Positions 209 to 15,899 of a DNA stretch of 47,300 bases are shown here, in pieces. The stretch's first letter is position 1. Each line of letters opens with the position of its first letter. The notes beneath the pieces are model-generated. The model was given only the letters and a program-made list of their open reading frames with translations, was not told the origin of the DNA and ran no database searches. Origin of the DNA: Spartinivicinus poritis (GTDB lineage Bacteria > Pseudomonadota > Gammaproteobacteria > Pseudomonadales > Zooshikellaceae); NCBI RefSeq assembly GCF_028858535.1, contig NZ_JAPMOU010000042.1:1-47300 (forward strand), given 5' to 3'. The position numbers and the translations under genes are program-made.

Positions 209-868
209 TTGGGCAGCTTAGATCCTTCTAGTCCAAGCTCAATGGGAAGTGTTGCAGCTGTTAAATATAGAAACTATATATCGGTTTGCATAATGCTTTA
301 CTGTGGCCTTAGACCAGGAGAGTTATTGAGCCTGAAGGTTGAGGATGTACAAATTGGCTCAATTTCTTCACTTAGGGTTGTAAGAAGGCCTCCAGACCCA
401 AGTGATGCCAGGAAGCCAAGACCACAAATAAAAAGAAATGGGAGAGTTTTGCCAATAAACAGCAGAGAATTTGTTCGGTGTTTGAATGAGTATATTGTGA
501 AGTGGAGGGATATCCTCGAATTAAACTCAAGCCAGGAAACTGACTATCTTATTCTAAGCGATGAAGGTCAGCCACTATCTTATGCTACTCTAACTCAGCT
601 GTTTAATCGGCTGAGAGCTAAATATCCAAAAAATCTTCCTTCACATCTTACCCCTAAAGCACTTCGGCATACTTTTTCAGCGAGAATGGAACGGGCATTG
701 AGAGTTGCAGGGCTTGATGAAGGTAGGAGAAGTCAGGCATTAGCATTACTTAGGGGAGACTCTAGTCTTGAATCCCAATCAGTATATATTGCTCAGGAAA
801 TAGAGGAAATTGCAAATAAAGCATTAGTTTCATATCAGAAAGGGCTGGTTAAGGGAGATCTGATTTGA
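209..868 (+). CDS. Tyrosine recombinase/integrase, probably 5'-damaged (first of trio)
   Basis: C-terminal catalytic half of a tyrosine site-specific recombinase (DNA cutting and rejoining through a tyrosine). Visible from the TTG at 209: box-I arginine R35 in GLRPGE, box-II arginine R153 in KALRHTF, and a candidate nucleophile Y193 in SVYIA. Two usual positions are altered: K150 where the HxxR histidine normally sits, and RGD (182-184) where LGH is usual. The reading frame stays open and protein-like back to 65, with no ATG/GTG/TTG before 209 (that stretch reads like a core-binding helix, YEYIREAKKQLNQWLEG). An in-frame TAA lies at 62-64. Hence the 209 start is doubtful and the gene is probably a nonsense-truncated copy of a longer integrase extending left of the window. 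Its stop overlaps the next start, as in an operon. The family is clear; integrity is not. Confidence 0.7.
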   Translation: MGSLDPSSPSSMGSVAAVKYRNYISVCIMLYCGLRPGELLSLKVEDVQIGSISSLRVVRRPPDPSDARKPRPQIKRNGRVLPINSREFVRCLNEYIVKWRDILELNSSQETDYLILSDEGQPLSYATLTQLFNRLRAKYPKNLPSHLTPKALRHTFSARMERALRVAGLDEGRRSQALALLRGDSSLESQSVYIAQEIEEIANKALVSYQKGLVKGDLI

Positions 869-2466
869 GTGCAGCAGCTAATGTCAAAGAACTAGTTAAG
901 CAGAAAGGGTGGACTCCATTAGCTGACACTATTGTATCTAGAGAGGGTGTGGCAATTGACACAAGTGGAGATAGGTGGGTACTACCTGTGGTTTATCGGT
1001 ATAGTACTCTTAATTTTTCACGAGTAAAAAGTGTCTATCTAAAGTGGTCTATTAAAAAATGTATTATTGATCAAGTTAAGCGTGTTTCATCTCATTCAGG
1101 CTGTGTTTATTGGAGTGATATTTCTGCTGCGGTTGTAGCAAGAGAAAGAGAGTTTAAGCTCGATGAGGTGACTAGTCCTTCTGAGTTTGAAGAAAAACTA
1201 ATTACTCTTTTTGAAACAATAATATCAGTTGCAAGGCTTAAGCATAGACTTTGGGCGCTATATCGGCCTATTCAATGGTACTTATGGTGCGCAGAAAATT
1301 ACCCTGAATTAGGCTTTTCTTTGGTTTATGCCCAAGAGCTTGAAGGGATGGTTATTCCTGGAAATCCAAAGGGGGAAGCCGTGAGGGAGGAAGATCCGGG
1401 AAGGGGTCCTCTCCATCGATCTTTAGAGCAGCCTTTGCTAATTAAAGCATTAAAAGAAGATAAAAGTTCGGTGTATTCCCATTTGCAGCAGAAAGTAGCT
1501 GTTGCTCTTTCTATAGCTTTTGGTCGCAATCCCGCCAACTTAACTTATTTAAAGCAAAAAGATTTGTCGAATATTGCAATGGCCAGCTCCGAACCATGTT
1601 ATGTGTTGAAAATGCCCAGAATTAAAAAGCGCCAGTTAGACCCTAGAGATGACATGTTAGATGAATACCTTGAGCCAGCATTTGCAGTGCATTTACTAAA
1701 TCTAATTGAGGCATCTAAGTCCTTCTCACTTTCAGTGAATACTGGTGAAAAAATATTGGAAATTGAAAAACCATTATTTATAAAAAATGCTAAAAATAGC
1801 GCTGCAGTTGCTACCAAACAATGGAAAAGTGCTTTCAATATGGCCTCAAAAGAAATTAGTGGATTGCTTCAGGCATTTGTTAAGCGGCATAACATAATTT
1901 CCCCATTAACTGGTGAGCTGATGCATGTTACTCCCCGTAGATTGCGTTATACACTGGCTACAGGTCTAGTAGCGGAAGGTATCAGCAAGCGTGAGTTAGC
2001 TAGAATTTTGGATCATACAGATACCCAGCATGTTCAGGTATATTTTGAAATGGCCGGTAACATAGTTGAGCATCTTGATAAGGCTTCCGCCAAAACATTT
2101 TCTAAATATATTAATTTTTTTAAAGGAAAAGTTATTAATGATAATTTAGAGGCTATCAATGGTGACAGAGATGATAAGCATCTTATATTTGTAGATGAGG
2201 CAAACCCCAGAGAACAATCTGATATTGGTGTTTGTGGTGAAACGAAAGTTTGCCACTTAGACCCACCTTACTCATGTTATCTCTGCCCCAAGTTTCAACC
2301 TTATCGCTATGCTGATCATGAGCATGTATTAGAGTGTTTGCTGGAGGGGAGACAGGAAAGGATTAAAAAGTACGAAAGTGCTAGGCTGGGAGTCCAGCTT
2401 GATGAGGTGATAGCTGCAGTCGCCCAGGTTGCTGATATTTGTGCCAAGGAGATTGCTCATGGCTGA
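865..2466 (+). CDS. Tyrosine recombinase/integrase (second of trio, 533 aa)
   Basis: Large integrase-like protein, probably a DNA strand-exchange subunit of the mobile element. It starts at TTG 865, overlapping the stop of the previous gene; the Shine-Dalgarno AAGGGAG (851-857) is 7 nt upstream and supports this start. A tyrosine-recombinase core lies near residues 205-400: R221 (FGRNP), R361 in TPRRLRYTL (R358 replaces the usual HxxR histidine), H384 (LDHTD) and candidate nucleophile Y393 (QVYFE). After the catalytic core a cysteine/histidine-rich tail (about 465-490, including CYLCPKF) could bind zinc, as in TnpB-type recombinases of Tn554-like elements. The N-terminal 200 residues are not recognised; they may be a DNA-arm or core-binding region. 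Translation is coupled to both neighbours. GmtY of gamma-mobile-trio elements is an alternative label I cannot confirm. Confidence 0.72.
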   Translation: MSAAANVKELVKQKGWTPLADTIVSREGVAIDTSGDRWVLPVVYRYSTLNFSRVKSVYLKWSIKKCIIDQVKRVSSHSGCVYWSDISAAVVAREREFKLDEVTSPSEFEEKLITLFETIISVARLKHRLWALYRPIQWYLWCAENYPELGFSLVYAQELEGMVIPGNPKGEAVREEDPGRGPLHRSLEQPLLIKALKEDKSSVYSHLQQKVAVALSIAFGRNPANLTYLKQKDLSNIAMASSEPCYVLKMPRIKKRQLDPRDDMLDEYLEPAFAVHLLNLIEASKSFSLSVNTGEKILEIEKPLFIKNAKNSAAVATKQWKSAFNMASKEISGLLQAFVKRHNIISPLTGELMHVTPRRLRYTLATGLVAEGISKRELARILDHTDTQHVQVYFEMAGNIVEHLDKASAKTFSKYINFFKGKVINDNLEAINGDRDDKHLIFVDEANPREQSDIGVCGETKVCHLDPPYSCYLCPKFQPYRYADHEHVLECLLEGRQERIKKYESARLGVQLDEVIAAVAQVADICAKEIAHG

Positions 2467-4468
2467 TGGGCGCTCCAATAGGAAAGCTAAGGTTGTGCCA
2501 TTTATTGATCAAATGGAACGCGACAGACAGGCTAATCTTAATGCTTTGATCAAAAAAGCTAAGCTCATGAAGCCAGATGGTTTTGAGTTTATTGATTGGC
2601 AAAGCCCACTATGGCGGATCGTTTCGGGTCGGCTAACCAAGTTAACTGGTAAAAATGCAGGGCCGGTATCAATTAACTTTTTGTATTCACAGAAGCTGGG
2701 TAGTGAGCCTTTACAGGGAGAGTGGGATGATCTTACTAAGAGTTTATTTGTACTTCGTTTTCACAGGAAGCATCAGGCTGTACCTAATCAACGTAACTTT
2801 ACCACCGCAGTGGGATATGTAGCCTATGCAGCAAATCAGTTAGGCCTCAGATTATCCCAGTTAACTCCAGAAGTGTTAGACAATGCTTGTCGTTTGGTCA
2901 CTCAACACTACAGTGACGGTACTGCATATAATCTGCATAAACATATCGCGGAATTTGCAGCTCATTGCGATGCAAATGGTTTATGTCGAGTATTGCTGCA
3001 ATATAAATATTCAAAAATGAAGCGACCAGAAAACACGGGTGGTCTTGGTCATAAACGACTAGATGATCCTGAAACGACTAAAAACAAGTCTGATAAGCTA
3101 GTTGAACCGTTAGTATTTAAAGTAGTTGGAGAGCTATATCAAAATATACCACAAAATCATAAATACCGTTTTTATGTTCTTATACTAACGTTGCTTGCTT
3201 GTACGGGGCGACGTTTTAGTGAAATATCGCTCCTTCCAGACCAAATTCTTTCTTCTGATCTAAATGGTAAACGCTATTTGGAGTATTTCCCAAGAAAGGC
3301 AAGTCGAGGTGATGTGTTTACACCGAAGCGAAAGCTTTATTTACCCTCTGAAGTGGTTTCTATCGTTGAAAGTGTTGTCAATGAGCTTAAATTAATTACT
3401 TCAGCACCTAGGCGAACTGCTGTGGAAATGTGTCGTGTAAAAGGACCAGACTTAACCTTTATGGAGCACATTGGGAAAGAGCATAAGCTTTATAAAGCAG
3501 ACCTTATCGGCTTGGGAATAAACCCGCAAGTAATTCATAGTCATGGATGGATTCGAAAAAATGGCTTTGCATGGGCTGATGAAGATGCAGTTACTTGCCA
3601 AGGAATAAAGCCTGCTAACCCCATTTATTTTACTACTAAAGAAGGGGTTGAAGCATATTGTAAAAAGAACTTTTTCGAGGCGTGCTTGCAGCCAATACAT
3701 ATTGATCAGCAAGGCAAGGAATACTATCTCAAAGACTTGTTATTGATAAGGTTTCAGGGACTATCTAGCGGTGCTTACTCTAAATGGACTGCCACCCAGT
3801 GCACCCATGCTATGTTCAGAACGTTCCTACGTTATTTTCCTGATCTTGCAGATGAGTATGCTTCTAGCAGCATCGAAGTCGATTTCACAAGCCACCACTT
3901 TCGCCACACTCTAAACACGTTACTTGATGAAGGGGGGCTAAGTGACCTTCTACAAACAGAATGGTTTGGAAGAACAAATCCTCGTGATACAAAAGCTTAC
4001 CAGCATACATCCAGAGAAAAACGGGCTCTGATGTTAAGGGAAGATATTAAAAAAGGGCTTGTGGGTGGTCAACTGGCTGATCAGATAAAAGTCCTACCAG
4101 TCAATGTGCAAGATGCCATTTTGCAAGCTCGCATTCAGGCAGTTCATGATGTTGGTACAGGTATTTGTATTCATAACTTCTCTCAAATACCTTGTGAGCG
4201 CCATCTGCAGTGTTCAGCTGACTGTATGGATTACGTATGGGCCAAGGACGACAAGGGCCGTCTGAATGAGCAGAAACGCCAATATGCACTAACAGAAATT
4301 TCAAGAGAGGCTGCGGAGCAGCGAATGTCTTCTAATAAGCCTAAAAAAAGCAGTGACTGGTTGTTGCACAATGAAAAAAAGCTAAAAACATTGAAAACAC
4401 AACTGGCTGACAATGGCGTGGTAGAATTTAATGCGAAGGAATTTTTAAAAGAGGTAGATCATGGTTAA
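2459..4468 (+). CDS. Tyrosine recombinase/integrase (third of trio, 669 aa)
   Basis: Largest recombinase of the operon. I choose ATG 2459 over an upstream in-frame ATG at 2429 because AAGGAG (2446-2451) sits 7 nt before it and it overlaps the preceding stop by 8 nt. Catalytic features: R252 in TGRRFSEI, a full HxxR box H479-x-x-R482 (SHHFRHT) and candidate nucleophile Y514 (KAYQH). The usual LGH is FGR here. A Cys-rich C-terminal segment (around residues 560-585, GICIHN, CERHLQCSADC) suggests a zinc-binding domain, and the end is lysine-rich and helical. Length and order resemble the long recombinase of Tn554-type TnpABC sets or GmtZ of gamma-mobile-trio islands; which is closer cannot be settled by eye. 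Probable role: integration and excision of the island together with genes 1, 2 and 4. Confidence 0.74.
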   Translation: MADGRSNRKAKVVPFIDQMERDRQANLNALIKKAKLMKPDGFEFIDWQSPLWRIVSGRLTKLTGKNAGPVSINFLYSQKLGSEPLQGEWDDLTKSLFVLRFHRKHQAVPNQRNFTTAVGYVAYAANQLGLRLSQLTPEVLDNACRLVTQHYSDGTAYNLHKHIAEFAAHCDANGLCRVLLQYKYSKMKRPENTGGLGHKRLDDPETTKNKSDKLVEPLVFKVVGELYQNIPQNHKYRFYVLILTLLACTGRRFSEISLLPDQILSSDLNGKRYLEYFPRKASRGDVFTPKRKLYLPSEVVSIVESVVNELKLITSAPRRTAVEMCRVKGPDLTFMEHIGKEHKLYKADLIGLGINPQVIHSHGWIRKNGFAWADEDAVTCQGIKPANPIYFTTKEGVEAYCKKNFFEACLQPIHIDQQGKEYYLKDLLLIRFQGLSSGAYSKWTATQCTHAMFRTFLRYFPDLADEYASSSIEVDFTSHHFRHTLNTLLDEGGLSDLLQTEWFGRTNPRDTKAYQHTSREKRALMLREDIKKGLVGGQLADQIKVLPVNVQDAILQARIQAVHDVGTGICIHNFSQIPCERHLQCSADCMDYVWAKDDKGRLNEQKRQYALTEISREAAEQRMSSNKPKKSSDWLLHNEKKLKTLKTQLADNGVVEFNAKEFLKEVDHG

Positions 4469-4937
4469 GCGGTTCAGACGTATGGCTGAAAGTGACATTT
4501 CCATTATTGTTAGAGATCTGGATCGATGGGCCATGGGGCAGTTAGGCTCAAAACTCACCTGGGCTATTTTAGAGGAGCGCTTTGGTTTTAGCCGACAGTC
4601 GTTACAGGCAAAACCTGAAATTAAGGCAGGTTATGATAATGCTAAGAGGGCTTTATCAGGTGGACTGGTTAAAACTAAAGAACAGGCGACTAAAGAAAAT
4701 GAAGAGCTGGTTGTTGAAATTGAGCGGTTGAAGACTGAAATTGAAGCTTTCAAGCGAAAGGAAGTGCTCTGGATGCAGCGCTGGCAGAGAATAGCATTTC
4801 ATATTAGGCAAAAAGGCATTCAAGTTTCTAGCGTAGATAAGCCAACACTGCCTAGTGCTGACCTGCCTTCTAATACAGAGTCAGCTCAGATTCTTAGGCC
4901 TTTTGATAAGGATATTCCAGCATCAGGGAGAGTATAA
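4461..4937 (+). CDS. Small coiled-coil protein of integrase operon (TnpC-like position)
   Basis: 158-residue protein whose ATG lies inside the end of the upstream integrase (8-nt overlap), so it is almost certainly co-translated. Residues 1-55 look like a small helical DNA-binding segment (WAILEERFGFSRQSLQ has helix-turn-helix character). Residues about 68-105 form a charged heptad-like coiled coil (KENEELVVEIERLKTEIEAF), followed by a Trp-rich amphipathic stretch and a disordered tail. No enzyme motif is seen. In Tn554-like elements a short third gene (TnpC) in the same position influences orientation and frequency of transposition; an analogous accessory role is inferred from position and architecture only. 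A second in-frame ATG at 4482 is a possible alternative start. Confidence 0.6.
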   Translation: MVKRFRRMAESDISIIVRDLDRWAMGQLGSKLTWAILEERFGFSRQSLQAKPEIKAGYDNAKRALSGGLVKTKEQATKENEELVVEIERLKTEIEAFKRKEVLWMQRWQRIAFHIRQKGIQVSSVDKPTLPSADLPSNTESAQILRPFDKDIPASGRV

Positions 4938-6001: not shown

Positions 6002-6331
6002 ATGGCTATTCAACAACATAATCCTATCCACCCTGGTGAATTTATTAAAAGGGTGTATCTAGACGAATTTGATATTGGTTCTAATGAATTAGCCAGACAT
6101 CTTCATGTCAGCTCAAGCATCATCAGTCGTCTACTAAATGGAAAGTCTGATGTTTCCCCTGCAATGGCTCTGAAACTATCTAAAGTGCTTGGCCGGTCAC
6201 CTGAAAGCTGGCTGCAAATGCAAGATAATTACAACTTATGGCAAGCCAGGAAATTAGTTAATCTAGACGAATTTACACCTTTTGACTTCTCTTCAAAAGC
6301 GGTGGGCAATGACGCCATTAATCATGTGTAA
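6002..6331 (+). CDS. higA: HigA-family XRE antitoxin, orphan
   Basis: 109-residue protein with the characteristic HigA opening (NPIHPGEFIKRVYLDEF) and an XRE helix-turn-helix (about residues 24-62: SNELARHLHVSSSIISRLLNGKSDVSPAMALKLSKVLG). Family members bind their own promoter and neutralise the RelE-like ribonuclease HigB, normally encoded just upstream. Here no HigB is present: the 3 nt upstream follow the stop of a VapC-like fragment, and downstream is non-coding. The start at 6002 has only a weak ribosome-binding site. It may act as a solitary regulator or an anti-addiction gene, or be a leftover. Family assignment is firm; function is inferred. Confidence 0.85.
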   Translation: MAIQQHNPIHPGEFIKRVYLDEFDIGSNELARHLHVSSSIISRLLNGKSDVSPAMALKLSKVLGRSPESWLQMQDNYNLWQARKLVNLDEFTPFDFSSKAVGNDAINHV

Positions 6332-6674
6332 AGAATAAGTATTGACTGTTAATAAAATATCTTTTGTCTTGTCATATTTTTAAACAGATCGCGCCTAATA
6401 CAGATTAGCCAGAAGACCCTATACTGCCGTTTATGGCGGTCCAGAAAGTGTAGTTTTACAACTAAAGTATCTAACTGAGTCTAACGCTAGCCGTTGATTT
6501 TTGGTTGGTGTTAGCGACATACCTGAAAATAATGTAGTTAACAACTTTATGCTGATGTTTAAATCATAGCCTAAAGCTGGAGAATAAAGTTGTTGTCGTT
6601 AAACAAATAAGTTTGTATCCCTAGGCTAATCCGTTAGCCCAAGGATACAAACTTTAATACTCTCTCACACCTTT
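6332..6674 (+). other. Structured non-coding spacer with palindromic repeats
   Basis: No credible gene. It contains a copy of the tatactgccgtttat-rgcgg motif (6420-6442), an imperfect stem-loop around 6480-6517 (taacgctagcc … ggttggtgttagcg), an 11-bp inverted repeat (6540-6550 with 6584-6594, aacaactttat/ataaagttgtt) and the strong hairpin annotated separately at 6611-6652. Related words recur at 15.55-15.70 kb. Confidence 0.6.
6611..6652 (+). repeat. Long hairpin (10-bp + 6-bp stem)
   Basis: gtttgtatcc (6611-6620) pairs perfectly with ggatacaaac (6643-6652), and inside it ggctaa pairs with ttagcc around a tccg loop. The left arm belongs to an 18-nt word (6600-6617) that reappears in reverse orientation at 15678-15695. 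It could also act as a bidirectional terminator, but there is no clean U-tract. Confidence 0.7.
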
Positions 6675-7182: not shown

Positions 7183-7506
7183 ATGCATCAGAAAGAAGAG
7201 AGTCTTCAGAATACGTTAATGAAGCTCAAACTTCACCTTTCTGTTCACGCAGGAAAGCAGCTTACATACGATGAGCTGGCGTCTATAGCAGGTGTTGGAT
7301 CTCGATCATTTGGCGAATGGATGAGAGGGACTACAGTGCCTCCAGGGATGTTGGCTCTTTTGAGGTTGATGTCTTTGCTTCCTCAAGACGAGCTTTCGTC
7401 GATTCTGAGTAACTGGAAGCAAGAAGAAGTTAAAACCTTAGTCAGTACAACTCCACCGAGGAAAAAACGTAATGGCAAAACGAGCAGAAGAAGCAACAGT
7501 AAATGA
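7183..7506 (+). CDS. Small HTH DNA-binding protein
   Basis: 107 residues. A helix-turn-helix is visible around residues 26-62 (KQLTYDELASIAGVGSRSFGEWMRGTTVPPGMLALLRLMSLL), of the Cro/XRE-like kind, followed by an acidic linker and a very basic C-terminus (PPRKKRNGKTSRRSNSK). Probably a transcription factor controlling itself and the overlapping NADAR gene; the palindrome at 7118-7137 could be its operator. No convincing Shine-Dalgarno precedes ATG 7183. The gene overlaps the next one by 35 nt, indicating co-transcription. It may also control the facing PRTase operon, although that operon's promoter is 8 kb away. Confidence 0.62.
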   Translation: MHQKEESLQNTLMKLKLHLSVHAGKQLTYDELASIAGVGSRSFGEWMRGTTVPPGMLALLRLMSLLPQDELSSILSNWKQEEVKTLVSTTPPRKKRNGKTSRRSNSK

Positions 7507-7987
7507 GATACGATTTTACCGAGCGAACGAGAAGCCGTACGGTGTTTTCAGCAACCTATACAAGCGGGAAATTGAGTTTGAAGGTAGGGTTTACCCAACT
7601 TCTGAACATGCATATCAAGCAGGAAAACCTCGTAAGGACTCTGTCAGGGATTGGGTATTAAGTGCACCGTCGCCTTCCTTAGTAGCGATGGCTGCTCATG
7701 GGTTGTACTGGTGGGATGTTCGCCCTGGTTGGTCAAAAATTAAATTTGATCGCATGAAAGCTATATTACTGGCCAAATTCACACAGCACATCGACCTCCT
7801 AGATATCCTCCTATCAACCGGTGACGCCAGATTGGTTGAATCGGCCACTGTAGACAACGACGTCAATCGAACTTGGGGCGAGGTCAATGGTAAAGGCCGA
7901 AATATGCTTGGAGTATTACTAATGGAAGTAAGAGAGGAGCTACGAGCCAAAGAGACCACAAGTAAGAAAAGCGTCCGCAGGGCTTGA
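7472..7987 (+). CDS. NADAR (YbiA-like) N-glycosidase-family protein
   Basis: 171 residues containing a complete NADAR domain (about 14-158). Signatures are FYRANEKPYGVFSNLY, the FEGRVYPTSEHAYQA box with conserved E45, and the C-terminal NRTWGEVNGKGRNMLGVLLMEVREEL. Known NADAR proteins cleave N-glycosidic bonds: YbiA acts on phosphoribosylated riboflavin intermediates, and others remove ADP-ribose from guanine bases as antitoxins to DarT-type toxins. ATG 7472 lies inside the HTH gene with GAGG about 10 nt upstream. It ends 19 nt from the convergent PfkB gene, so it physically belongs with the PRTase cassette. No DarT toxin is in the window. A role in reversing or processing a ribosyl modification made by the neighbouring operon is an inference. 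Confidence 0.82.
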   Translation: MAKRAEEATVNEIRFYRANEKPYGVFSNLYKREIEFEGRVYPTSEHAYQAGKPRKDSVRDWVLSAPSPSLVAMAAHGLYWWDVRPGWSKIKFDRMKAILLAKFTQHIDLLDILLSTGDARLVESATVDNDVNRTWGEVNGKGRNMLGVLLMEVREELRAKETTSKKSVRRA

Positions 7988-8006
7988 AAGGTGAAAGGCA
8001 TACGTG

Positions 8007-9095
8007 TCACGATCCGCAACACTCGAAGGACTGCAGTACCGATAAATCGGGAGAAGGCCTGTACTTTCGAGACCTTTTAGTATAGAGATAATCGTACAGG
8101 CCCTCTTGATACACTACACCTGAAAGATAATCTTGAAGTTCAGACATCTCCGAGAATCGCGATTTGGTAAGTCTGGTAGCGGCTGTAGTGATGTTCTTCG
8201 TTGAGTACTCCGATAAAAGGCCTCTAGCCCCTACTGTCATACAGTTAAATGTCGATAGTACCTGCCCATATGCCAAAGCATGGGCAATACAGGTATAAGT
8301 TATGCCTTTCTGCAATGACGTTCTGTGAAGTAAGGAATGTATAAAACCTGCCGTACACCAATCACCCGCACCTGAGGTATCTTTGATAGTCGGGAGTTTA
8401 TATGCCCCCATAGAAACCCAATCTTTAGTTAGGGAAGACGCTCTAAATTTGAGTCCATCAGCCCCTTTGGTTTGAATTTCTATATCCACTTTACTTAGGT
8501 CAAAAACGTCTAGATCCGGTATACGATCATCTGCATACTTCAACACATTGGTATATTTTAGGATACGTTCAAATAGCTCAGGATCATCTCCCACTGCAGA
8601 CGGCTCAAATACTATAAAAACGCCTTTCTGAGAATACCTTTCAGCAAGCTTATATCCTAGCCTGGTAGGACGATCCAGGAAAAACACATCCGCGTCAGGT
8701 GCAGAGCGAACTTTACCATCGATTACACGTTCGTCGATGCAGAAATTTGGCTTGTGCTTTGTTCCGCATTGAGGACATGTAAAGCTAAATCTATGAGTGG
8801 GGCCGTCATTTCCAGACAACTGGTGCTGATATACTACTGGAGTGCGAAAATGCTTAGACTGCTTTAGGTAAGACGTATTAGCGTTAACCAAACGAAACTC
8901 TTGAAGAAGCCTTTCTCCTGCATGGTCTTTTCCAATGACAGAAATAGGTGTTGCGCCCCAGCCCAGGGAAGCAAGAATGGATAACACATTGCCTGCAGAG
9001 CCACCAAGGGCTGAAGAAACAGCTTCCCCTCTCTGATCGATTAAGATGTCGAGGGCAATTAACCCTGTTCCAACTACTCTTCTATTACTGCGCAT
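8007..9095 (-). CDS. PfkB/ribokinase-family kinase with CxxC insertion
   Basis: 362-residue sugar/nucleoside kinase of the PfkB superfamily. The N-terminal substrate-side motif GGSAGN (31-36) and the ATP/anion-hole signature DTSGAGD (239-245, catalytic base D245) are both intact, so it should be active. Unusually, between the lid strands it carries CPQCGTKHKPNFC (107-119), a CxxC-x8-C cluster with a neighbouring H114 that resembles a zinc ribbon. The C-terminus (about 290-362) extends past the usual domain. It is the last gene of the five-gene minus-strand operon, 24 nt after the preceding stop. PfkB enzymes phosphorylate ribose, adenosine, fructose-phosphates and similar; the true substrate is unknown. 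In context a ribosyl or nucleoside compound linked to the PRTase is a reasonable guess. Confidence 0.8.
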   Translation of the reverse strand: MRSNRRVVGTGLIALDILIDQRGEAVSSALGGSAGNVLSILASLGWGATPISVIGKDHAGERLLQEFRLVNANTSYLKQSKHFRTPVVYQHQLSGNDGPTHRFSFTCPQCGTKHKPNFCIDERVIDGKVRSAPDADVFFLDRPTRLGYKLAERYSQKGVFIVFEPSAVGDDPELFERILKYTNVLKYADDRIPDLDVFDLSKVDIEIQTKGADGLKFRASSLTKDWVSMGAYKLPTIKDTSGAGDWCTAGFIHSLLHRTSLQKGITYTCIAHALAYGQVLSTFNCMTVGARGLLSEYSTKNITTAATRLTKSRFSEMSELQDYLSGVVYQEGLYDYLYTKRSRKYRPSPDLSVLQSFECCGS

Positions 9096-9119
9096 GATTA
9101 GTTACTCTGAGGCAAAGGA

Positions 9120-10205
9120 TTACGCATTAGGCTTTTCAACCAGCCAATTGTGCCACATTTTTATTGGCTCGCTTATAGGTATATCTGGCACATCTTGTGC
9201 CGTACATTGATAACCCATTGTTTCCGTATACATCACTGGAAGATCAAGATCTATAGCCGCAAATAGCATCCCCAGACTTCCGATTTTTCGTCCGGTGGGA
9301 GACAAAATCATCCTCGTTGGATGCTCTGGATACGATTTCAAGGCCTCTGTGCGCCCTTTTTCTATTCGTTTTATAGATTCAAAAACGTCTGTTGGATCCG
9401 ATTCATGAGCATAAATAAAGTCTAGTAGATTCGTGTCCCATTCCTTAACTATCGGTTCATGAAACTTGATTAGAAGATCATCTGCCCGACGAGGATTGCT
9501 CGAGGGAAATGGTAAAATTGGTGCTACTTCTTCCGCATGAATTTTTGAATGGATTTTTCTGAGAGAAGAAAGGTTGTCTTCAGACAACTGAGGTAACCAA
9601 AGCTTTATAGACTGAGTTGCTCCGTCAGTTTCCATATCTTTCTGGAATCCGTGCATATACTCCGCGGAATCACTCGACATAGAGCTAACGTTCAAGGGGA
9701 AGCCCTGATCTTCAGCAATAACTACATGAACATCCATACTAGAAACTTTCTTCTTTTGTTCAAAAACATATTTCACCACTGGGAAGCAGACACCTCTCGA
9801 CATAGTTGTGGCATCAACAATTACATCCGTATAGCTACTCCCATTCATTAAGTTCCCAAGTATTCGGATAGCATTTCGGCCAGCCACGTTTGCTGTATCA
9901 TCAGCTACGATCTGAAGCTCAGGAAACGAAAGTGCACCGTGATTTATCAATTCTTCCAGGCGTGCCTTATTACGAGAAGCAGTTTGATTTAATACAGGAG
10001 AGACTTCTGGTCTGATTTCATTCAAAAATATGTATTTAGGAGGAAGAAACTTGTTTATGGATGAAATCAACTTAGGGAAGTGCAAACATGCGCTATTAAA
10101 TCCTAGTGTACCGATAAATAGGACATTCTTATTTTTATTGCAAAAATACGACTCAAAGAAAGTCTGACACTCTTCTCGATTTTGATGGCTTATTATTTCT
10201 AGCAT
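9120..10205 (-). CDS. Unrecognised Rossmann-like protein of PRTase operon
   Basis: 361 residues, no family recognised with confidence. What can be seen: an N-terminal alternating strand/helix pattern beginning VLFIGTLGFNSACLHFPKL (about 29-47), then DVIVDATTMSRG (about 136-147), and a C-terminal ILSPTGRKIGSLGMLFAA…YTETMGY (299-331). Strand-loop-helix segments with TTxSRG and TGxKxxSxG loops recall nucleotide-sensing CARF-type Rossmann domains (whose motif is TGGTK-M), but this is only a resemblance. No signal peptide or membrane segment. ATG 10205 has AGGA 7 nt upstream and starts 8 nt after the ATPase gene. Likely a nucleotide-binding sensor or effector within the cassette. Confidence 0.6.
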   Translation of the reverse strand: MLEIISHQNREECQTFFESYFCNKNKNVLFIGTLGFNSACLHFPKLISSINKFLPPKYIFLNEIRPEVSPVLNQTASRNKARLEELINHGALSFPELQIVADDTANVAGRNAIRILGNLMNGSSYTDVIVDATTMSRGVCFPVVKYVFEQKKKVSSMDVHVVIAEDQGFPLNVSSMSSDSAEYMHGFQKDMETDGATQSIKLWLPQLSEDNLSSLRKIHSKIHAEEVAPILPFPSSNPRRADDLLIKFHEPIVKEWDTNLLDFIYAHESDPTDVFESIKRIEKGRTEALKSYPEHPTRMILSPTGRKIGSLGMLFAAIDLDLPVMYTETMGYQCTAQDVPDIPISEPIKMWHNWLVEKPNA

Positions 10206-10213
10206 TGCGGATC

Positions 10214-12109
10214 CTATTCTGACACTGCGGACTGAAGACCAGATAAGGTATCTTCAATGAAGCCACCTCTACCTAGCGTTAGGCCATGTGCAATACATGG
10301 AACACCACCAAGTTCTAATAGACACCATTCTTCTTTTTTACATTTGTAGTTGGGAATAAATATTATGGCTTTATACGCAAAAGCAAAATGCAATATTCGC
10401 GTTAACCTTTCTGACCTGTCTAATACTGCATTAAACTCCCTCTGTGGAATTCCTATTGCGTTAGGGCCATCATCCAACGGAGCGTTAGGTGCCATGGTTC
10501 TCTCGACACAACGACTTGCGATAAATTGCACCAGATTCCGCACAGCTGCATGATACGGAAAATCCCATTCGCTAATTATTTTTCTGGCCCTATTCACCAA
10601 AGCTTTATGCTGGGTTAAAGGCGAAAGCTGTGGCTTCTTCCCTCTAATTAGCTGAGCCAAAAGTTCATCTATTAATGCGCCAGAAAGATTTATAAATTGT
10701 TCAATATTGGAGTTGCTTGCATCAGCTAACTTTTCCATACCAAAATAATACGGACGTCCAAAATCATGGAGGAGCTGTATTCTTGCGCCATCAATAACTG
10801 CTGTCCGAGCTTTACGATCTTCTGTAATTGGCTCTTCCCTAAAAACATCTTCACCAAGCAGCGAGAGCTGAGGGGTTTTATTCTTTTCTCGGTTAAGCAA
10901 AATCTTTAAAGCTGCTAAGCTCTCATCCTCAGGAAGGTCCCTGGGGACCCGTTTCTTTATAGCTTCCACTAACGAATCTGAAAATTGCGCTTCGCCTTGA
11001 ATTTTATTAACAATTTTTCGCAACTTATCGATATCTGTTTTACGTAGTGCAGAAGCCTTTGTATCCAGCAACAGCCTCAGATCGTCTATAGATCGCCGTG
11101 AAAACTCAGGAATCCTGGGGATATATCGCTTACATATGTCTCGAGCAATCTTCCTAAATTCTTTTTTCTGATTACTCGAAAGCTGAACTAACTTTAGGAA
11201 ATAGTCGCGGCCAGATGAGGTACCAAACTTAGATTCCACTACGGCATCTGAGGCTAAAACATCTCTGTAGTCTTCAGGGGATACTACATCAGGTCTACAC
11301 ATTACCCAACGGGATATCTGAATATTCCGTTTCTTCAGCCATTCCCTTAACGATACATACTGACTAGGATGGAGTTCATGAGCATCGTCTACGATGATCA
11401 TCGGCTTAAGGGTCACACTACCTTTTCCGTTCCACGATTCTTTATTTGAAACTCGAAAACCTACAATATTTTCGAAGACATCGTATTTTTCGTTAATAAA
11501 ATCAGATGCTAAGGTATTTTCGTCAGGCGCAATTAAAGAAGTCACGGTGCGAAATATTGCAAGCTCTACCTCACGAGCGTGTTCCCTAAATTCAATTGGA
11601 GAACGAGCTCCCATTGAAATGTGCGCAGACTCTGAATCTTCACTAAATAGAACTTCAATATCCTCAATTGGAATCTCAGCCTTTTCTAATTGCCGAAACC
11701 AACCAAGTACCGCTTTTGACTGTACAAATCCTCTTAATAAACTGGATCGGAGTTGCTCCGAGTAGGGTAGTTCCCAGATGCTCCGAAAATTGGAACTCAT
11801 TGGCAGCCGGTAAGCCAACAATACTGGTACAAGGTCTGACAGAAGCTTTAAATCACTTAAAACACCAGCTAACTCGCCGTTAATTTGCTTTGGATTCCGT
11901 GAAATCTCATCCAAAGCATCAAATTCTAATATTCTAGCAATAGTGGTCTTACCGCAACCAGGTGTTCCAACCACAATTGTTAATTTTTCTAGCAATGCTC
12001 CTTGCTCGCTTAGAAAAAACTCGCGTATAGGAGTAGGGCTGACTAAGGGAAGTAGCGCGCTGGCTTCCGGAACATATTCAGTAGCACGTTTAATGAAAGG
12101 ATTATCCAT
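10214..12109 (-). CDS. P-loop ATPase, ORC/CDC6-like AAA+ appearance
   Basis: About 631 residues from the preferred ATG at 12109; an in-frame TTG at 12136 would add nine. The ATG overlaps the PRTase stop by 8 nt and has AAGG about 10 nt upstream. Walker A is GTPGCGKTT (about 48-56) and Walker B is MIIVDDAHEL (about 237-246), separated by a long insertion, with RWVMCRPD downstream in the sensor region. The DD(A)HE Walker B and helical C-terminal half suit the STAND/AAA+ ATPases often called ORC-CDC6-like in predicted prokaryotic conflict systems. No recognisable effector domain is fused. It likely serves as an ATP-driven switch or DNA/RNA-engaging scaffold for the PRTase and kinase. Confidence 0.72.
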   Translation of the reverse strand: MDNPFIKRATEYVPEASALLPLVSPTPIREFFLSEQGALLEKLTIVVGTPGCGKTTIARILEFDALDEISRNPKQINGELAGVLSDLKLLSDLVPVLLAYRLPMSSNFRSIWELPYSEQLRSSLLRGFVQSKAVLGWFRQLEKAEIPIEDIEVLFSEDSESAHISMGARSPIEFREHAREVELAIFRTVTSLIAPDENTLASDFINEKYDVFENIVGFRVSNKESWNGKGSVTLKPMIIVDDAHELHPSQYVSLREWLKKRNIQISRWVMCRPDVVSPEDYRDVLASDAVVESKFGTSSGRDYFLKLVQLSSNQKKEFRKIARDICKRYIPRIPEFSRRSIDDLRLLLDTKASALRKTDIDKLRKIVNKIQGEAQFSDSLVEAIKKRVPRDLPEDESLAALKILLNREKNKTPQLSLLGEDVFREEPITEDRKARTAVIDGARIQLLHDFGRPYYFGMEKLADASNSNIEQFINLSGALIDELLAQLIRGKKPQLSPLTQHKALVNRARKIISEWDFPYHAAVRNLVQFIASRCVERTMAPNAPLDDGPNAIGIPQREFNAVLDRSERLTRILHFAFAYKAIIFIPNYKCKKEEWCLLELGGVPCIAHGLTLGRGGFIEDTLSGLQSAVSE

Positions 12110-13220
12110 CACTAGAATGCCTTTCTCTTCTGACAAACAAAGGTTTCATCACGTGCCCTTTTTTAGTTCCAATGCCAGATTGAGCCCACAAAATTGCAAC
12201 CGTGTTATTTGGCGTATTGTGATCCAGTACTAGCGGCAAACCGCACTGTTTATAACCGTACCAAATTCCTGCCTTCTTATGATTATCTTCAATACCGGGG
12301 TCGTAGCAGTTTGCCAGCATATCTTTTAATTCATCGTCATCTATCTCATCACTAATTACTATGTGATCCGGCAACACATAAGAAAATGAGGAAATATACT
12401 CGAACTCAGACTGCTCTTCCTTGTACTTTCTTAGACTCTCGTCGATTGTCTGTTGTGCTTGACTTGAGGCGAGGTGATGATGAATGAATATCGTACAGTT
12501 TTTTTTCAGCTGGTTTCCAATTCGCTCCATATTTGTTTTATAAAAGCGTGGAATTTTACCCTTCCAAACATTCTTTTGTTCATCATCAGGTCGAATTAAC
12601 GACGACCCCGACCCTGAAAAATCGTCAACTAAACAGACAGCTTCAAATTGCGCTGGTTCATTAGTATAACCTTTCTTTTCTAGCCATTTTTGTAGCTCAG
12701 ACTTAAGGTCATTCCATTTATCTTCTGAAATTTCACTATAGGGAACGACTTGTTCATTTGAAACAGTTCCCTCATTGTATCGTCTAAAAACATCGATTCT
12801 CGCACCATCACTCAATCCAACAAATAGAGTTTTTCTTCTTGATATCTTTAAACGCTCAGTTGCTTCAGAATTAAACCAAGTCTCATAGAATTTAATTCCC
12901 AAAGCTTCTGCTATGCGTGTCCTCATTATCCGTTCTAGAGCTGGCATCATCAAACTTACCAAATGATACATTTCTCGTTGGCTGACAAAAACCAACCTTT
13001 CCTTCACAAATGCATAGGCTTTTCGCTTTCTTCCAAGGGTATCAAATTGGCTAAGCCAATTAAGAAAGGCTATGTGAAATTTAGTCGCGGGCTGAAAGCC
13101 CTGATAGCGATCATACTTAAGGTTAATTAAAAGTTGTAACGCCGGAAATTCTTGGCTAAGTTCCGCATCAGTCCATTCCAGTTGACTCGCAATAAGCCTC
13201 CAAGCGGTCTCTTTCTTCAT
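12102..13220 (-). CDS. Phosphoribosyltransferase-like protein (PRTase-CE type)
   Basis: 372 residues. The diagnostic element is a PRPP-binding loop, AVCLVDDFSGSGSSL (about 194-208), matching the hhhhDDxxxSGxT motif of type I phosphoribosyltransferases: two acidic residues after a hydrophobic strand, then a Ser/Gly-rich loop. VGLSDGARIDVFRRYN (134-149) would provide the partner strand. Residues 1-110 are a helical extension, unlike housekeeping purine/pyrimidine PRTases (about 180-220 aa). Long PRTases next to an ORC/CDC6-like ATPase were described computationally as PRTase-CE in conflict systems (from memory of Aravind-group work). Expected chemistry is transfer of 5-phosphoribose from PRPP to an unknown acceptor, possibly a nucleotide, RNA or protein. 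Start ATG 13220 with AGGG close upstream, 32 nt after the SIS-HAD gene. Confidence 0.75.
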   Translation of the reverse strand: MKKETAWRLIASQLEWTDAELSQEFPALQLLINLKYDRYQGFQPATKFHIAFLNWLSQFDTLGRKRKAYAFVKERLVFVSQREMYHLVSLMMPALERIMRTRIAEALGIKFYETWFNSEATERLKISRRKTLFVGLSDGARIDVFRRYNEGTVSNEQVVPYSEISEDKWNDLKSELQKWLEKKGYTNEPAQFEAVCLVDDFSGSGSSLIRPDDEQKNVWKGKIPRFYKTNMERIGNQLKKNCTIFIHHHLASSQAQQTIDESLRKYKEEQSEFEYISSFSYVLPDHIVISDEIDDDELKDMLANCYDPGIEDNHKKAGIWYGYKQCGLPLVLDHNTPNNTVAILWAQSGIGTKKGHVMKPLFVRRERHSSDG

Positions 13221-13252
13221 CGGCCCTGATTTCCCTATAAGCTATTCAAAGG

Positions 13253-15181
13253 CTATATCAATTGGCTAATTCGATGCCCATCTTTGAATTTAGTAAGATG
13301 TTTTAAATATGACAAGGTGGCTCGAGCCTGTCTATTACCAGGCGGAGCGTAATTCCAGCAGGAAAGCAGAGATGAAGTGACCTTGTCCGCACTTAGCGAA
13401 AGACCACCAGAAAGGAGTTCAAAGTCGTTCCCCTCTTCGTGTCCACTGTCTCCTAATCGTAGGATTTCACTTTTTGGGCACAAGTTAAAATTTTCAGCAA
13501 CAAACTCGATAACGTTTCTTTTTGATGTATTACTATCTAATACATCTACAGAATGACCAGAGCTGAAGACTCGCCATCCAATTTTATCAGTATCAATAAA
13601 CCAGGAACGGATTGCCATGAGAAGCTTTTGTGCTTGAGCGTTACTTTCCAGCCTTATAGTAAACTGGCCCCCCTTCGCCATATCTTCTAAGGGCCTTTTG
13701 GAATGGTATATTGCTATTGAATTAAGCCATTCATATATTTCCTGAAAACCTATATTTGCGGGAGGGGGTTGAACATCTACATTTAACTTCTCTATTACAG
13801 ACCCCCCATAGTAACCAACCCAAATAGAATCATGGTATTTTGTATCAATGGCTTGTCGTAGACATCTTTGAAGAGAGTCTCCTCTCCCAGATGCAACGAC
13901 CAATGTAATCCCTTCTCGCAATAACCTAGAGAGCTCCTCTCTTATTTCTGGGCACATCCCGTCATACCTACCTTCGGTATTGCATAGAGTTCCATCAAAA
14001 TCACTTACAATTGCCTTGATACTAGCGCTACACAACTTCGAATAATAGCGGTGGGATGCATCGACAACTTTAGAGAATTGCTCAGAGTTCGAAGTCGTTC
14101 TACCAATCTTTCGATAAGCAGCTAAACCGTGAGCATCTTCGATGCAAATATCACTATGTAAGTCTTTACTTGGATCCAATTTGTGTATGTCCCGGCCAAA
14201 TTGGGGAATAGTAGGCTGGCCAGGATCTACATCAGATGCCTTTGCAATCGATTCTGTGGCAAATGATGCCATTAACAAACTGGTTATCAATATCTCTTGC
14301 GGTGTTTGTCCTGAAACTCTAAAGACTGCGACAGGGACACCCGCCGGCACTAGTTTCAAAGTCTCCGTAGCGATATTTTCACCAGTGTAACTATTTACTG
14401 AAATAATCAAGGGGGCCTTACTAATATTCACTAATCTCAGGTGTCTGCCATGAGCAAATTGTCTATAGTCTGCAATCTCCACATTTGCCAATGCAGATTC
14501 TGCGAGCTTGGACTCCAGATCGATTGCAAATGGCTTTGTCAGAGTGTCATGGAGTACTAATATCGGTCGAGTTGGGTATTCTAAAATAGCTCTGCAGGTT
14601 AACCACTGATTACGATATTTGCGTAACGAACCAGCATTAAACTCTCGACTTATAAGCTGGTCTGTTTCTTCCGGCCCAAACAATGCTTTATAGAAGAGAA
14701 TGACCGTCGCTATCAGGCTATTAGTAGCAAGATAGCCGTCCTTCTCCCATGGCATGTCATAAGAATAAGTTCTAACAGATCCAGTTTGCTCACTGTATTC
14801 CACAAGAGGGCTATTTTTTTTTAGAGTAACGGCCGCGCACGAGATATCTGCCATAGCCGCCGTTTTAGCCGACGCTAATATGTCAGTATTCTTTCCTTCA
14901 GCAGATAAAAGCATGATTTTAGTGGATTCAAATCTTGCCCCTTTTGTGGCAAACTCCATCGGAGTCATTGCTATAGTGGGAACCCTTTGAGCATATTCTC
15001 TTAGTTCCGCAACGGTATATGCTGCGGAATACGACCCTCCAGACCCCACAACGGCTATATAGTCCTCCACCCAAGAGGCCATGAGCCGTTCTAGTAAACT
15101 AACATTCTGATTGAATGCCCATTTAACTGAGTCTTGGAAAGAATCTAATTCGCTGGAATATGGTTTCCCCAAGGTTTTCAC
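13253..15181 (-). CDS. SIS-HAD fusion protein
   Basis: 642 residues, first gene of the operon. The N-terminal SIS (sugar isomerase) domain has YIAVVGSGGSYSAAY (41-55), the phosphosugar-binding loop, then LLSAEGKNTD (91-100). A second SIS-like half contains DYRQFAHGRH (238-247), comparable with the His-containing active-site loop of GlmS/AgaS-type isomerases. The C-terminal HAD phosphatase of the Cof/sucrose-phosphatase kind has DFDGT (394-398, nucleophile D394), ASGRG (430-434), K554 and GDSGHEEGND (577-586). Together they could interconvert and dephosphorylate a sugar phosphate. Start: the frame opens at GTG 15181, but AAGGGAG is almost adjacent to it; an in-frame TTG at 15172 is better spaced (about 8 nt), so the true start may be there. 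Fusion of SIS and HAD next to a PRTase is unusual. Confidence 0.82.
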   Translation of the reverse strand: MKTLGKPYSSELDSFQDSVKWAFNQNVSLLERLMASWVEDYIAVVGSGGSYSAAYTVAELREYAQRVPTIAMTPMEFATKGARFESTKIMLLSAEGKNTDILASAKTAAMADISCAAVTLKKNSPLVEYSEQTGSVRTYSYDMPWEKDGYLATNSLIATVILFYKALFGPEETDQLISREFNAGSLRKYRNQWLTCRAILEYPTRPILVLHDTLTKPFAIDLESKLAESALANVEIADYRQFAHGRHLRLVNISKAPLIISVNSYTGENIATETLKLVPAGVPVAVFRVSGQTPQEILITSLLMASFATESIAKASDVDPGQPTIPQFGRDIHKLDPSKDLHSDICIEDAHGLAAYRKIGRTTSNSEQFSKVVDASHRYYSKLCSASIKAIVSDFDGTLCNTEGRYDGMCPEIREELSRLLREGITLVVASGRGDSLQRCLRQAIDTKYHDSIWVGYYGGSVIEKLNVDVQPPPANIGFQEIYEWLNSIAIYHSKRPLEDMAKGGQFTIRLESNAQAQKLLMAIRSWFIDTDKIGWRVFSSGHSVDVLDSNTSKRNVIEFVAENFNLCPKSEILRLGDSGHEEGNDFELLSGGLSLSADKVTSSLLSCWNYAPPGNRQARATLSYLKHLTKFKDGHRISQLI

Positions 15182-15250: not shown

Positions 15251-15466
15251 TGTAGTGGTCCAGTAAAACCCAACAATTTTTTAAGAGGCTTTTTTCAATT
15301 GATGAGCTCTCTCAAATTCCATCGGTGTTTAATAGTTTAAAGCTGAATGTTTTCGTTCGCTGTTATAGTATGTAATGTAGTCCCAGATCGCTTGGCGTGC
15401 TTCATGCTTGGTTTGAAAGCGAATGCGGTGTAACCACTCTGAATTAAGTTTTCGAAATACTCTTTC
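15251..15466 (-). mobile_element. IS3-family insertion sequence remnant (orfB 3' end and one terminus)
   Basis: Read on the minus strand, 15466-15281 encodes ERVFRKLNSEWL, then YYNSERKHSALNY and TPMEFERAH, the classic end of IS3-family OrfB (DDE) transposases. An in-frame TAA interrupts HSALNY/TPMEFE, so even this piece is dead. The outer sequence starting tgtagtggtccagtaaaacc (15251) looks like the terminal inverted repeat. Just inside the coding fragment a run of seven G (15471-15477) ends the similarity; the left two-thirds of the IS is missing. Confidence 0.75.
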
Positions 15467-15552
15467 TGTAGGGGGGGATCCCAGAATTGCCTTTTCTGCT
15501 CATACTTTGGATCATATTATAGCACTTAAGTTGGTTACTGTCGGTAAGCTCT

Positions 15553-15696
15553 TATACTGCCGTTTATAGCGGCTCCGGCTACAAAATAAGTTTGTAACTA
15601 GGTTAGTCTGCAAGGCTGATTCTATCGTTAGGAGCGCTTAGAAAAGAGCCTCAACCCCAACAAATAAAGCTCTTGGTTACAAACTTATTTGTTTAC
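15553..15696 (+). repeat. Palindromic repeat element related to 6.42-6.65 kb
   Basis: It begins with tatactgccgtttatagcgg (15553-15572), nearly identical to 6420-6439. It contains a perfect 14-bp inverted repeat aataagtttgtaac (15585-15598) / gttacaaacttatt (15676-15689) and an inner aagagc…gctctt stem. The right arm shares 18 nt (15678-15695) in reverse orientation with 6600-6617. The two copies bracket the PRTase cassette. No coding capacity. Confidence 0.65.
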
Positions 15697-15899
15697 CTAC
15701 ACCAACATCTTTACAATTAAGGTGAAGTAATCATCTATATTCAATTATAATTCTTGATGAAATTGAGATTAACTTGACAGTTTTTGAATGTTATGTTTTA
15801 GAAATCAATATTTATAGGGTGTTTGGCAGTGCTTTTGTGTATTTATACGAACTACCGTTTTAAATTCCACTATAGAGCAGTTATGTAAAGAATGTTAGT

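What the first reader, a model, noticed from the sequence alone, without database searches (positions are those of the whole stretch)
7183..15181. PRTase-SIS-HAD-ATPase-PfkB operon facing an HTH-NADAR pair: candidate PRPP-based conflict system
Seen: five minus-strand genes with 8-nt overlap or gaps of at most 32 nt, carrying SIS+HAD, a PRPP loop (LVDDFSGSGS), Walker A/B ATPase, an unknown Rossmann-like protein and PfkB, converging within 19 nt on a NADAR gene. Known: long PRTases with ORC/CDC6-like ATPases have been predicted as conflict-system parts, and NADAR enzymes cleave N-glycosidic or ADP-ribose bonds. Inference: the PRTase attaches phosphoribose to a target, NADAR may reverse it, and SIS/HAD/PfkB make or recycle the sugar. 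Location next to an integrase operon supports a defence cargo. I know of no experimental description of this exact set.
Basis: partly seen in the sequence, partly recalled or inferred. Interest (0 to 1): 0.8.

Follow-up and report, generated by a model that had tools for sequence, protein, structure and literature searches.

The report
Mobile phosphoribosyltransferase-CARF defence-like gene cassette
A block of five bacterial genes, often with one or two more, is found as a unit in distant bacteria and probably protects them from viruses by acting on nucleotides or their sugar-phosphate building block, using a sensor protein usually associated with CRISPR but here mostly without CRISPR.

Summary
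Five minus-strand genes (8007-15181) face an HTH-NADAR pair (7183-7987). The unknown Rossmann-like protein is a CARF6-family protein (PADLOC E 5e-135); PRTase and ATPase belong to PRTase-CE and ORC-CDC6-like. The set is a real cassette: all five genes in 50 of 50 genome loci (of the 80 best-matching) with 7 kb held on both sides; NADAR in only 27. In 299 genomes of the phylum, CARF6 and the SIS-HAD fusion occur in the same 5. It occurs on 18 of 72,556 plasmids, is absent from the 55 other relatives, and is not tied to type III CRISPR. Catalytic residues are nearly invariant. PRTase relatives are defence-linked (beside reverse transcriptases; DS-32, a PRTase-NADAR pair named anti-phage). I read it as a PRTase-CE conflict system with a CARF6/AAA+ switch and sugar-phosphate enzymes. 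NADAR as reverser of the PRTase is at most optional: of 22 searched genomes whose locus lacks NADAR, 17 have none over cut-off. Substrate, trigger and function are inferred. Structure prediction could not be run, and the key PRTase-CE paper could not be read, so the set may already be catalogued.

The parts
13253..15181 (-). SIS-HAD fusion (NagB-II/GlmS-like SIS part, then HAD-IIB phosphatase)
   Evidence: HAD Pfam E 4e-9; SIS profile to 8eol E 5e-8; E225, H241, D391, D393, K551, D575 in 91 of 91 rows; in a 299-genome sample found (E at most 1e-15) in the same 5 genomes as CARF6
12102..13220 (-). PRTase-CE phosphoribosyltransferase-like protein, proposed effector
   Evidence: PF24390 72.9 bits, cut-off 27; PADLOC PRTase_III-A E 9e-19; D200 and G205 in 95 of 95 rows, D199 in 92 (E in 3)
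10214..12109 (-). ORC/CDC6-like AAA+ ATPase
   Evidence: PF24389 65.9 bits, cut-off 27; Walker A G51, G53, K54 and Walker B D241 in 94 of 94 rows; ATG at 12109
9120..10205 (-). CARF6-family protein, proposed ligand sensor
   Evidence: PADLOC PDLC01916 E 5e-135 over residues 4-355; highest co-variation with the PRTase, r 0.956
8007..9095 (-). PfkB-family kinase
   Evidence: PF00294 E 4e-14; family profile to fructokinase chains, best E 4e-20; D245 of the GAGD motif in 83 of 83 rows
7472..7987 (+). NADAR (YbiA-type) N-glycosidase-like protein, optional part of the cassette
   Evidence: PF08719 E 5.5e-27; family profile to YbiA 2b3w E 2e-28; present in 27 of 50 full loci; 70% mean identity against 44.5% for the PRTase of the same 46 loci
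7183..7506 (+). small HTH protein, possible regulator of NADAR
   Evidence: weak HTH_31/MqsA matches below cut-off; relatives next to NADAR in other loci; regulation itself untested
209..4937 (+). recombinase operon beside the cassette (three recombinase-like ORFs by reading, plus a DUF6262-like small protein)
   Evidence: Phage_integrase E 1.5e-5 and DUF6262 E 0.0018, both below cut-offs, for the two of four ORFs scanned; 'Tn554-like' is recalled, not tested
6413..6620 (.). left flanking repeat segments
   Evidence: 27-nt direct match (85%) to 15546-15572 and 32-nt inverted match (88%) to 15675-15706; local alignment scores above the maximum of 200 shuffles
15546..15706 (.). right flanking repeat segments

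Best explanation
A mobile, mostly CRISPR-independent defence (conflict) cassette built around a PRTase-CE effector. The ORC/CDC6-like AAA+ ATPase and the CARF6 protein form the sensing and switching part (inferred). Once switched on, the PRTase acts at a phosphoribose glycosidic bond: it either strips bases from nucleotides or loads phosphoribose from PRPP onto a target, so that an infected cell is starved or poisoned (inferred; direction unknown). The SIS-HAD fusion and the PfkB kinase process the sugar-phosphate product, limiting damage or completing the reaction (inferred). NADAR, encoded on the opposite strand next to an HTH gene, is an optional N-glycosidase that protects from, or adds to, that chemistry (inferred). 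Shown here: conserved linkage, co-variation, intact active-site residues, plasmid carriage and patchy distribution, and homology to defence-linked PRTases.
For: All five genes in 50 of 50 full loci. CARF6 and SIS-HAD in the same 5 of 299 genomes. All 17 plasmid records with CARF6 are among the 18 with the PRTase. Co-variation of pairwise identities with the PRTase: CARF6 0.956, ATPase 0.914, SIS-HAD 0.850, PfkB 0.844, HTH 0.828, NADAR 0.645; 0 of 999 permutations reach any of them. Active-site residues invariant or nearly so. Other PRTase-CE proteins over cut-off in 398 genomes of the phylum: 9 of 18 beside a reverse transcriptase, 2 of 18 in DS-32-like PRTase-NADAR pairs (both in one genus), 1 of 18 beside an ORC-CDC6-like ATPase. 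A DprA-PRTase pair protected E. coli from T7 and lambda (PMC9122126, passage). A CARF-HAD fusion is a proven type III effector that dephosphorylates dATP, ATP and IMP (PMC12715507, abstract). ORC/CDC6 ATPases recur in conflict systems (PMC10853773, passages). Mobile setting: 8 conjugative, 1 mobilizable and 9 non-mobilizable of the 18 plasmids; absent from the 55 other relatives.
Against: No phage or enzyme assay of this set is known to me. No fold was predicted. The profile search of solved structures found nothing for the PRTase (E up to 1) and nothing credible for CARF6 (best E 0.27). The PRTase tree needs only 10 phylum changes where 9 is the least possible, so much of its descent stays within phyla. 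Another genome of the same order (G190) carries the cassette. Defence genes in the flanks had no control. A metabolic role for SIS, HAD and PfkB is not excluded.
Confidence: 0.5

Rival explanations
1. One reading: the PRTase attaches phosphoribose to a target as a toxin and NADAR is the cognate antitoxin that removes it; SIS/HAD/PfkB make or recycle the sugar.
For: NADARs are antitoxins for DarT1 and YarT (PMC11125620, abstract and passages). PRTase and NADAR also pair in DS-32-like loci. NADAR is encoded on the opposite strand and is strongly conserved.
Against: NADAR absent from 23 of 50 full loci; of 22 of those genomes searched, 17 have none over the cut-off. NADAR co-varies least with the PRTase of the six partners tested (r 0.645), though its low divergence alone could lower that value.
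Confidence: 0.15
2. Self-made messenger: the PRTase with SIS-HAD and PfkB makes a nucleotide or sugar-nucleotide signal that CARF6 reads to switch the ATPase; NADAR and HAD erase it.
For: CARF domains are thought to bind nucleotide ligands (PMC4012209, passages) and one binds cA4 (PMC12715507, abstract). Pfam assigns no effector domain to the CARF6 protein. No Cas10 over cut-off in the own genome, and a strong one in only 2 of 50 cassette genomes. CARF6-PRTase co-variation is the highest.
Against: No known cyclase or polymerase in the cassette; no ligand known; the basic residue of the CARF strand-4 signature is present in only 27 of 86 CARF6 rows. Other ligand makers (for example CBASS cyclases) were not searched for.
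Confidence: 0.2
3. A mobile sugar-phosphate salvage or repair operon (for example of glycated or phosphoribosylated amines), not defence.
For: SIS, HAD and PfkB are carbohydrate-enzyme families with intact active-site residues. SIS plus PfkB recalls fructosamine breakdown (recalled).
Against: The constant partners are an AAA+ ATPase, PRTase-CE and CARF6; patchy distribution. Transporters were not systematically searched for.
Confidence: 0.1
4. A nucleic-acid modification pathway that adds a sugar-derived group to DNA or RNA bases.
For: PRTase, N-glycosidase, phosphosugar enzymes and an ORC-like ATPase could together modify bases (inference).
Against: The five constant genes include no recognised methylase, nuclease or base-inserting enzyme.
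Confidence: 0.05

Closest known systems
DS-32 (NCBIfam NF053875/NF053876: PRTase-like and NADAR anti-phage proteins; DS names are those of DefensePredictor, PMC13092281)
   Same: A PRTase-CE-type protein beside a NADAR protein
   Different: Window NADAR scores 63.6 bits against a cut-off of 240 and the PRTase has no hit to NF053875. The DS-32-like loci read (L143, L144) have no hit to the cassette ATPase, CARF6, SIS-HAD or PfkB profiles.
Type III-A retrons
   Same: Homologous PRTase (PADLOC PRTase_III-A E 9e-19)
   Different: No reverse transcriptase found in the window or the 95 cassette loci
PRTase-CE / ORC-CDC6-like systems (Pfam PF24390/PF24389; Nicastro et al. 2023, title seen in reference lists, content recalled)
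   Same: Both families are over the Pfam cut-off; a PRTase plus ORC pair is seen in L146
   Different: Here CARF6, SIS-HAD and PfkB are constant extra parts; whether that paper already lists this set is unknown to me
CARF6 proteins as modelled in PADLOC
   Same: Full-length profile match
   Different: Usually no Cas10 in the genome; partners are PRTase and ATPase
DprA-PRTase system of P2-like phages (PMC9122126, passage)
   Same: A PRTase in a system that gave phage protection
   Different: Different partner gene; whether that PRTase is of the PRTase-CE family was not tested

Membership tests
PRTase-CE (PF24390) | profile match over the gathering score | tested here: met
   72.9 bits, cut-off 27; 0 of 14 control genomes over cut-off, 4 ring below it
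PRTase-CE (PF24390) | acidic PRPP-binding loop | tested here: met
   D200 95 of 95, D199 92 of 95 with E in 3, G205 95 of 95
PRTase-CE (PF24390) | type I PRTase fold | not testable with these tools
PRTase-CE (PF24390) | action on nucleotide glycosidic bonds (prediction recalled from Nicastro et al. 2023) | not testable with these tools
   needs enzymology
ORC-CDC6-like (PF24389) | profile match and intact Walker A and B | tested here: met
   65.9 bits, cut-off 27; Walker residues
CARF6 | match to the family model | tested here: met
   PADLOC PDLC01916 E 5e-135; three distant cassette members also match CARF6 models
CARF6 | CARF strand-4 signature [DN]x[ST]xxx[RK] (PMC4012209, passages) | tested here: inconclusive
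   [DN]x[ST] in 86 of 86 rows; basic residue at the last position in 27 of 86, the window among them
CARF6 | Rossmann-like CARF fold | not testable with these tools
   structure prediction not available; no credible PDB sequence match
CARF6 | cyclic oligoadenylate binding | not testable with these tools
   biochemical
Type III CRISPR accessory protein | Cas10 in the same genome | tested here: not met
   own genome: none over the cut-off (26.6 bits against 27); of 50 cassette genomes 16 are over the cut-off, 2 with E below 1e-28 and 14 at about 25-36 bits that are probably GGDEF cross-hits, not checked one by one
DS-32 | NF053875 PRTase and NF053876 NADAR over cut-off | tested here: not met
   NADAR 63.6 against 240 bits; no hit for the PRTase
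Type III-A retron | reverse transcriptase beside the PRTase | tested here: not met
   no hit at E 1e-10, with a two-sequence RT profile, in ORFs of the window and 95 cassette loci
NADAR (YbiA family) | profile match and glutamate in the last strand | tested here: met
   PF08719 E 5.5e-27; E131 in 46 of 47 rows; that E131 is that glutamate is judged by position, not by structure

The most novel reading that the evidence does not exclude
A CRISPR-independent CARF signalling system that makes its own messenger from PRPP: the PRTase with SIS-HAD and PfkB builds an unknown nucleotide-like signal, CARF6 reads it and drives the ORC-like ATPase, and NADAR or HAD erases it. That would be a new source of CARF ligands beside Cas10-type polymerases.
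Probability: 0.2. Interest if true: 0.85.

Novelty: new variant of a known kind. Interest (0 to 1): 0.62.

Why it matters
A fixed set of five genes with intact active-site residues, found in Pseudomonadota, Planctomycetota, Chloroflexota, Actinomycetota and Bacillota and on plasmids, links a CARF-family protein to a phosphoribosyltransferase mostly without CRISPR. It would make two open questions testable: what PRTase effectors do (their mode of action is described as unclear for retrons), and what ligand a CARF protein reads when there is no Cas10.

Tried and rejected
NADAR as obligatory antidote: not supported, given its absence from 23 of 50 full loci and the genome search. CARF6 as a partner of type III CRISPR: not supported. 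Retron: no RT. DS-32 membership: below cut-offs. Phage origin: no match of CARF6 or PRTase in 50,697 phage records; 4 IMG/VR contigs carry the cassette or most of it (L137 and L138 all five genes; L139 no SIS-HAD in the held DNA; L140 no PfkB) and may hold host DNA. Empty-site test: not possible, because the window is a whole contig and the 2.8 kb beside the cassette is not in the two sister genomes apart from one 134-nt match at 74%. Flanking proteins: of 150 ORFs picked nearest the cassette in 50 loci, 145 were scanned (5 dropped for the size limit). Some of the 145 are the cassette's own HTH gene and some may not be genes. Hits included 4 integrases, 2 TnsD, 2 TniQ, 2 IS110 transposases, 2 type I methylases and 2 AriA-like, but there was no control and only 25 of 99 (Pfam) and 25 of 170 (PADLOC) families were shown, so this is descriptive only. 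Profile comparison of the cassette PRTases with the DS-32-like PRTase of L144 aligned only the C-terminal HNTPNN/LFxRR part (35 columns, probability 64%, E 6.6e-5). Papers not held: the CARF classification, the rhodanese-phosphatase paper, the 2020 immune-components paper and the PRTase-CE paper. I do not claim that this exact set is undescribed: the listings shown by the literature searches (several of them capped lists) contained no paper that I recognised as describing it.
Full report
What is there. The window holds five minus-strand genes in tight succession (8007-15181): SIS-HAD, PRTase, AAA+ ATPase, CARF6, PfkB. They converge on NADAR (7472-7987), which follows a small HTH gene (7183-7506). 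Pfam places the PRTase in PRTase-CE and the ATPase in ORC-CDC6-like, both over cut-off. PADLOC identifies the 'unknown Rossmann-like' protein as CARF6 with E 5e-135 and matches the PRTase to the type III-A retron PRTase models with E 9e-19. By family profile the SIS part is like NagB-II/GlmS (8eol, E 5e-8), PfkB like fructokinases, NADAR like YbiA. Neither the PRTase nor CARF6 has a credible relative among solved structures by sequence.

It is a conserved cassette. A scan of one genome per species (84,980 species) found 325 PRTase relatives; only the best 80 were kept, so the more distant 245 were not examined. Of the 80 loci, the ATPase is found in 80, SIS-HAD in 79, CARF6 in 78, PfkB in 70, NADAR in 39 and HTH in 23; many contigs are short. 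Of the 50 loci with at least 7 kb held on both sides of the PRTase, each of the five genes is found in 50, NADAR in 27, HTH in 19. These counts include genes in pieces (L052, L057, L060). Two main orders occur: SIS-HAD first, or PRTase-ATPase-CARF6-SIS-HAD-PfkB followed by convergent NADAR and HTH. Fifteen of the 17 plasmid records with CARF6 were read: PRTase, ATPase and CARF6 in 15, SIS-HAD in 14, PfkB in 13, NADAR in 7, HTH in 5; one of them (L020) has several genes in pieces. In L016 the trio PRTase-ATPase-CARF6 stands without the sugar enzymes in the held 17 kb.

Two less biased tests agree. In 299 genomes drawn from the phylum, the own among them, the CARF6 query finds 5 genomes and the SIS-HAD query (E at most 1e-15) finds the same 5. 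The PRTase query finds 18 plasmid records of 72,556 and the CARF6 query 17, all among the 18. Pairwise identities of the partners follow those of the PRTase: CARF6 r 0.956 (86 loci), ATPase 0.914 (93), SIS-HAD 0.850 (91), PfkB 0.844 (82), HTH 0.828 (28), NADAR 0.645 (46); 0 of 999 permutations reached any value. NADAR is far better conserved (70% mean identity) than the PRTase of the same loci (44.5%).

The enzymes look active. Rows are one best copy per locus from the window, 15 plasmid and 80 genome loci; copies matching less than about 90% of the expected length were dropped before counting. PRTase: S137-D138-G139, D200, F201, G205, H334-N335 and P337-N338 in 95 of 95 rows. ATPase: G51, G53, K54 and D241 in 94 of 94, T55 in 93, D242 in 92. 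SIS-HAD: E225 and H241, which align with the Glu and His of the NagB-II chain (their catalytic role is recalled), and the HAD residues D391, D393, K551 and D575 in 91 of 91. PfkB: D245 in 83 of 83. NADAR: E131 in 46 of 47.

Mobility. The PRTase (E at most 0.001) is absent from the 55 other relatives, two genomes of the same genus among them; another genome of the same order, G190, does carry the cassette. Eight of the 18 plasmids are typed conjugative, one mobilizable and nine non-mobilizable; in L021 the cassette lies between conjugation genes. Four IMG/VR contigs carry it or most of it, but no record among 50,697 phages matches. Against frequent transfer between phyla: the PRTase tree (quick method) needs 10 phylum changes where 9 is the minimum, although single rows of Chlamydiota, Actinomycetota, Thermodesulfobacteriota and Poribacteria are drawn inside Pseudomonadota. 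Beside the window cassette lie recombinase-like genes (209-4937), and short repeats flank it.

What its relatives do. In 398 genomes of the phylum, 18 have a PRTase-CE over cut-off: 5 in this cassette (one of them, L157, without a PfkB found), 9 beside a reverse transcriptase (retron-like; the RNA was not tested), 1 beside an ORC-CDC6-like ATPase, 2 in DS-32-like PRTase-NADAR pairs, both in one genus, in an island with a DrmD-like helicase and DUF1156/DUF499 proteins that score below their NCBIfam cut-offs, and 1 other. NCBIfam calls the DS-32 proteins anti-phage. DefensePredictor names its experimentally validated systems DS (PMC13092281: abstract, sections 5, 7 and 15 and passages seen); DS-32 itself is not described in the text I saw, so the link rests on the NCBIfam names. 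DprA-PRTase protected against T7 and lambda (PMC9122126, passage). The window proteins do not pass the DS-32 cut-offs.

CARF without CRISPR. The own genome has no Cas10 over the cut-off. Of 50 cassette genomes (48 of the 50 full loci plus those of L048 and L092), 16 are over the Cas10 cut-off, but only 2 strongly (E below 1e-28); the other 14 are at about 25-36 bits and are probably GGDEF domains, since the E. coli control also rings (the GGDEF reading is inference and was not checked one by one). So the CARF6 ligand, if any, is usually not made by Cas10. Other cyclases were not searched for.

NADAR. Of 22 searched genomes whose locus lacks NADAR, 5 have one over cut-off elsewhere and 17 do not, one of these with a weaker match; some are draft bins. 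NADAR is therefore an optional part. The own genome has five NADAR genes over cut-off, that of the window included.

Mechanism. I think it most likely that ATPase and CARF6 sense infection and release the PRTase, which acts on a phosphoribose glycosidic bond of nucleotides or of a target, with SIS-HAD and PfkB processing the sugar phosphate. A HAD domain that dephosphorylates nucleotides is a known CARF-linked effector (PMC12715507, abstract). Nicastro et al. 2023 predicted PRTase-CE to degrade nucleotides (recalled; the paper was not held; its title was seen in the reference lists of PMC12839542, PMC10853773 and PMC12265719). Everything about trigger, substrate and outcome is inference.

Noticed in passing
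window 17021-45724: One 9567-aa open frame with repeated adenylation-type motifs: a giant non-ribosomal peptide synthetase by reading; not searched by profile.
   Followed up: no
window 209-4937: Recombinase-like ORFs plus a DUF6262-like protein, reminiscent of Tn554-type elements (recalled); a relative of the largest lies about 6 kb from the cassette in L028.
   Followed up: partly
window 15251-15538: A stretch with a 94% copy elsewhere in the genome (C87) and a shorter 99% copy (C125); reads like an IS3-type transposase relic (not tested).
   Followed up: partly
window 6413-6620 and 15546-15706: Paired direct and inverted repeats on both sides of the cassette, each in a stretch that can fold into hairpins; may mark a mobile unit.
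   Followed up: partly
window 5375-5746 and 6002-6331: A small protein that reads like peptidyl-tRNA hydrolase 2 and a HigA-like antitoxin (both by reading).
   Followed up: no
L143 and L144: DS-32-like PRTase-NADAR pair in an island with DrmD-like helicase, DUF1156 and DUF499 proteins.
   Followed up: partly
G000:C5:190726-191277 (L008, L161): A second, weak PRTase-CE match (25.6 bits, below cut-off) in a long co-directional gene cluster that may be a Ter-type cluster (guess from gene sizes).
   Followed up: no
L016, L018, L020: Doubled or decayed copies of the trio or cassette on rhizobial plasmids.
   Followed up: no
L023, L140, L157: Variant NADAR-SIS-HAD-PRTase-ATPase-CARF6 order with no PfkB found in the held DNA.
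   Followed up: no
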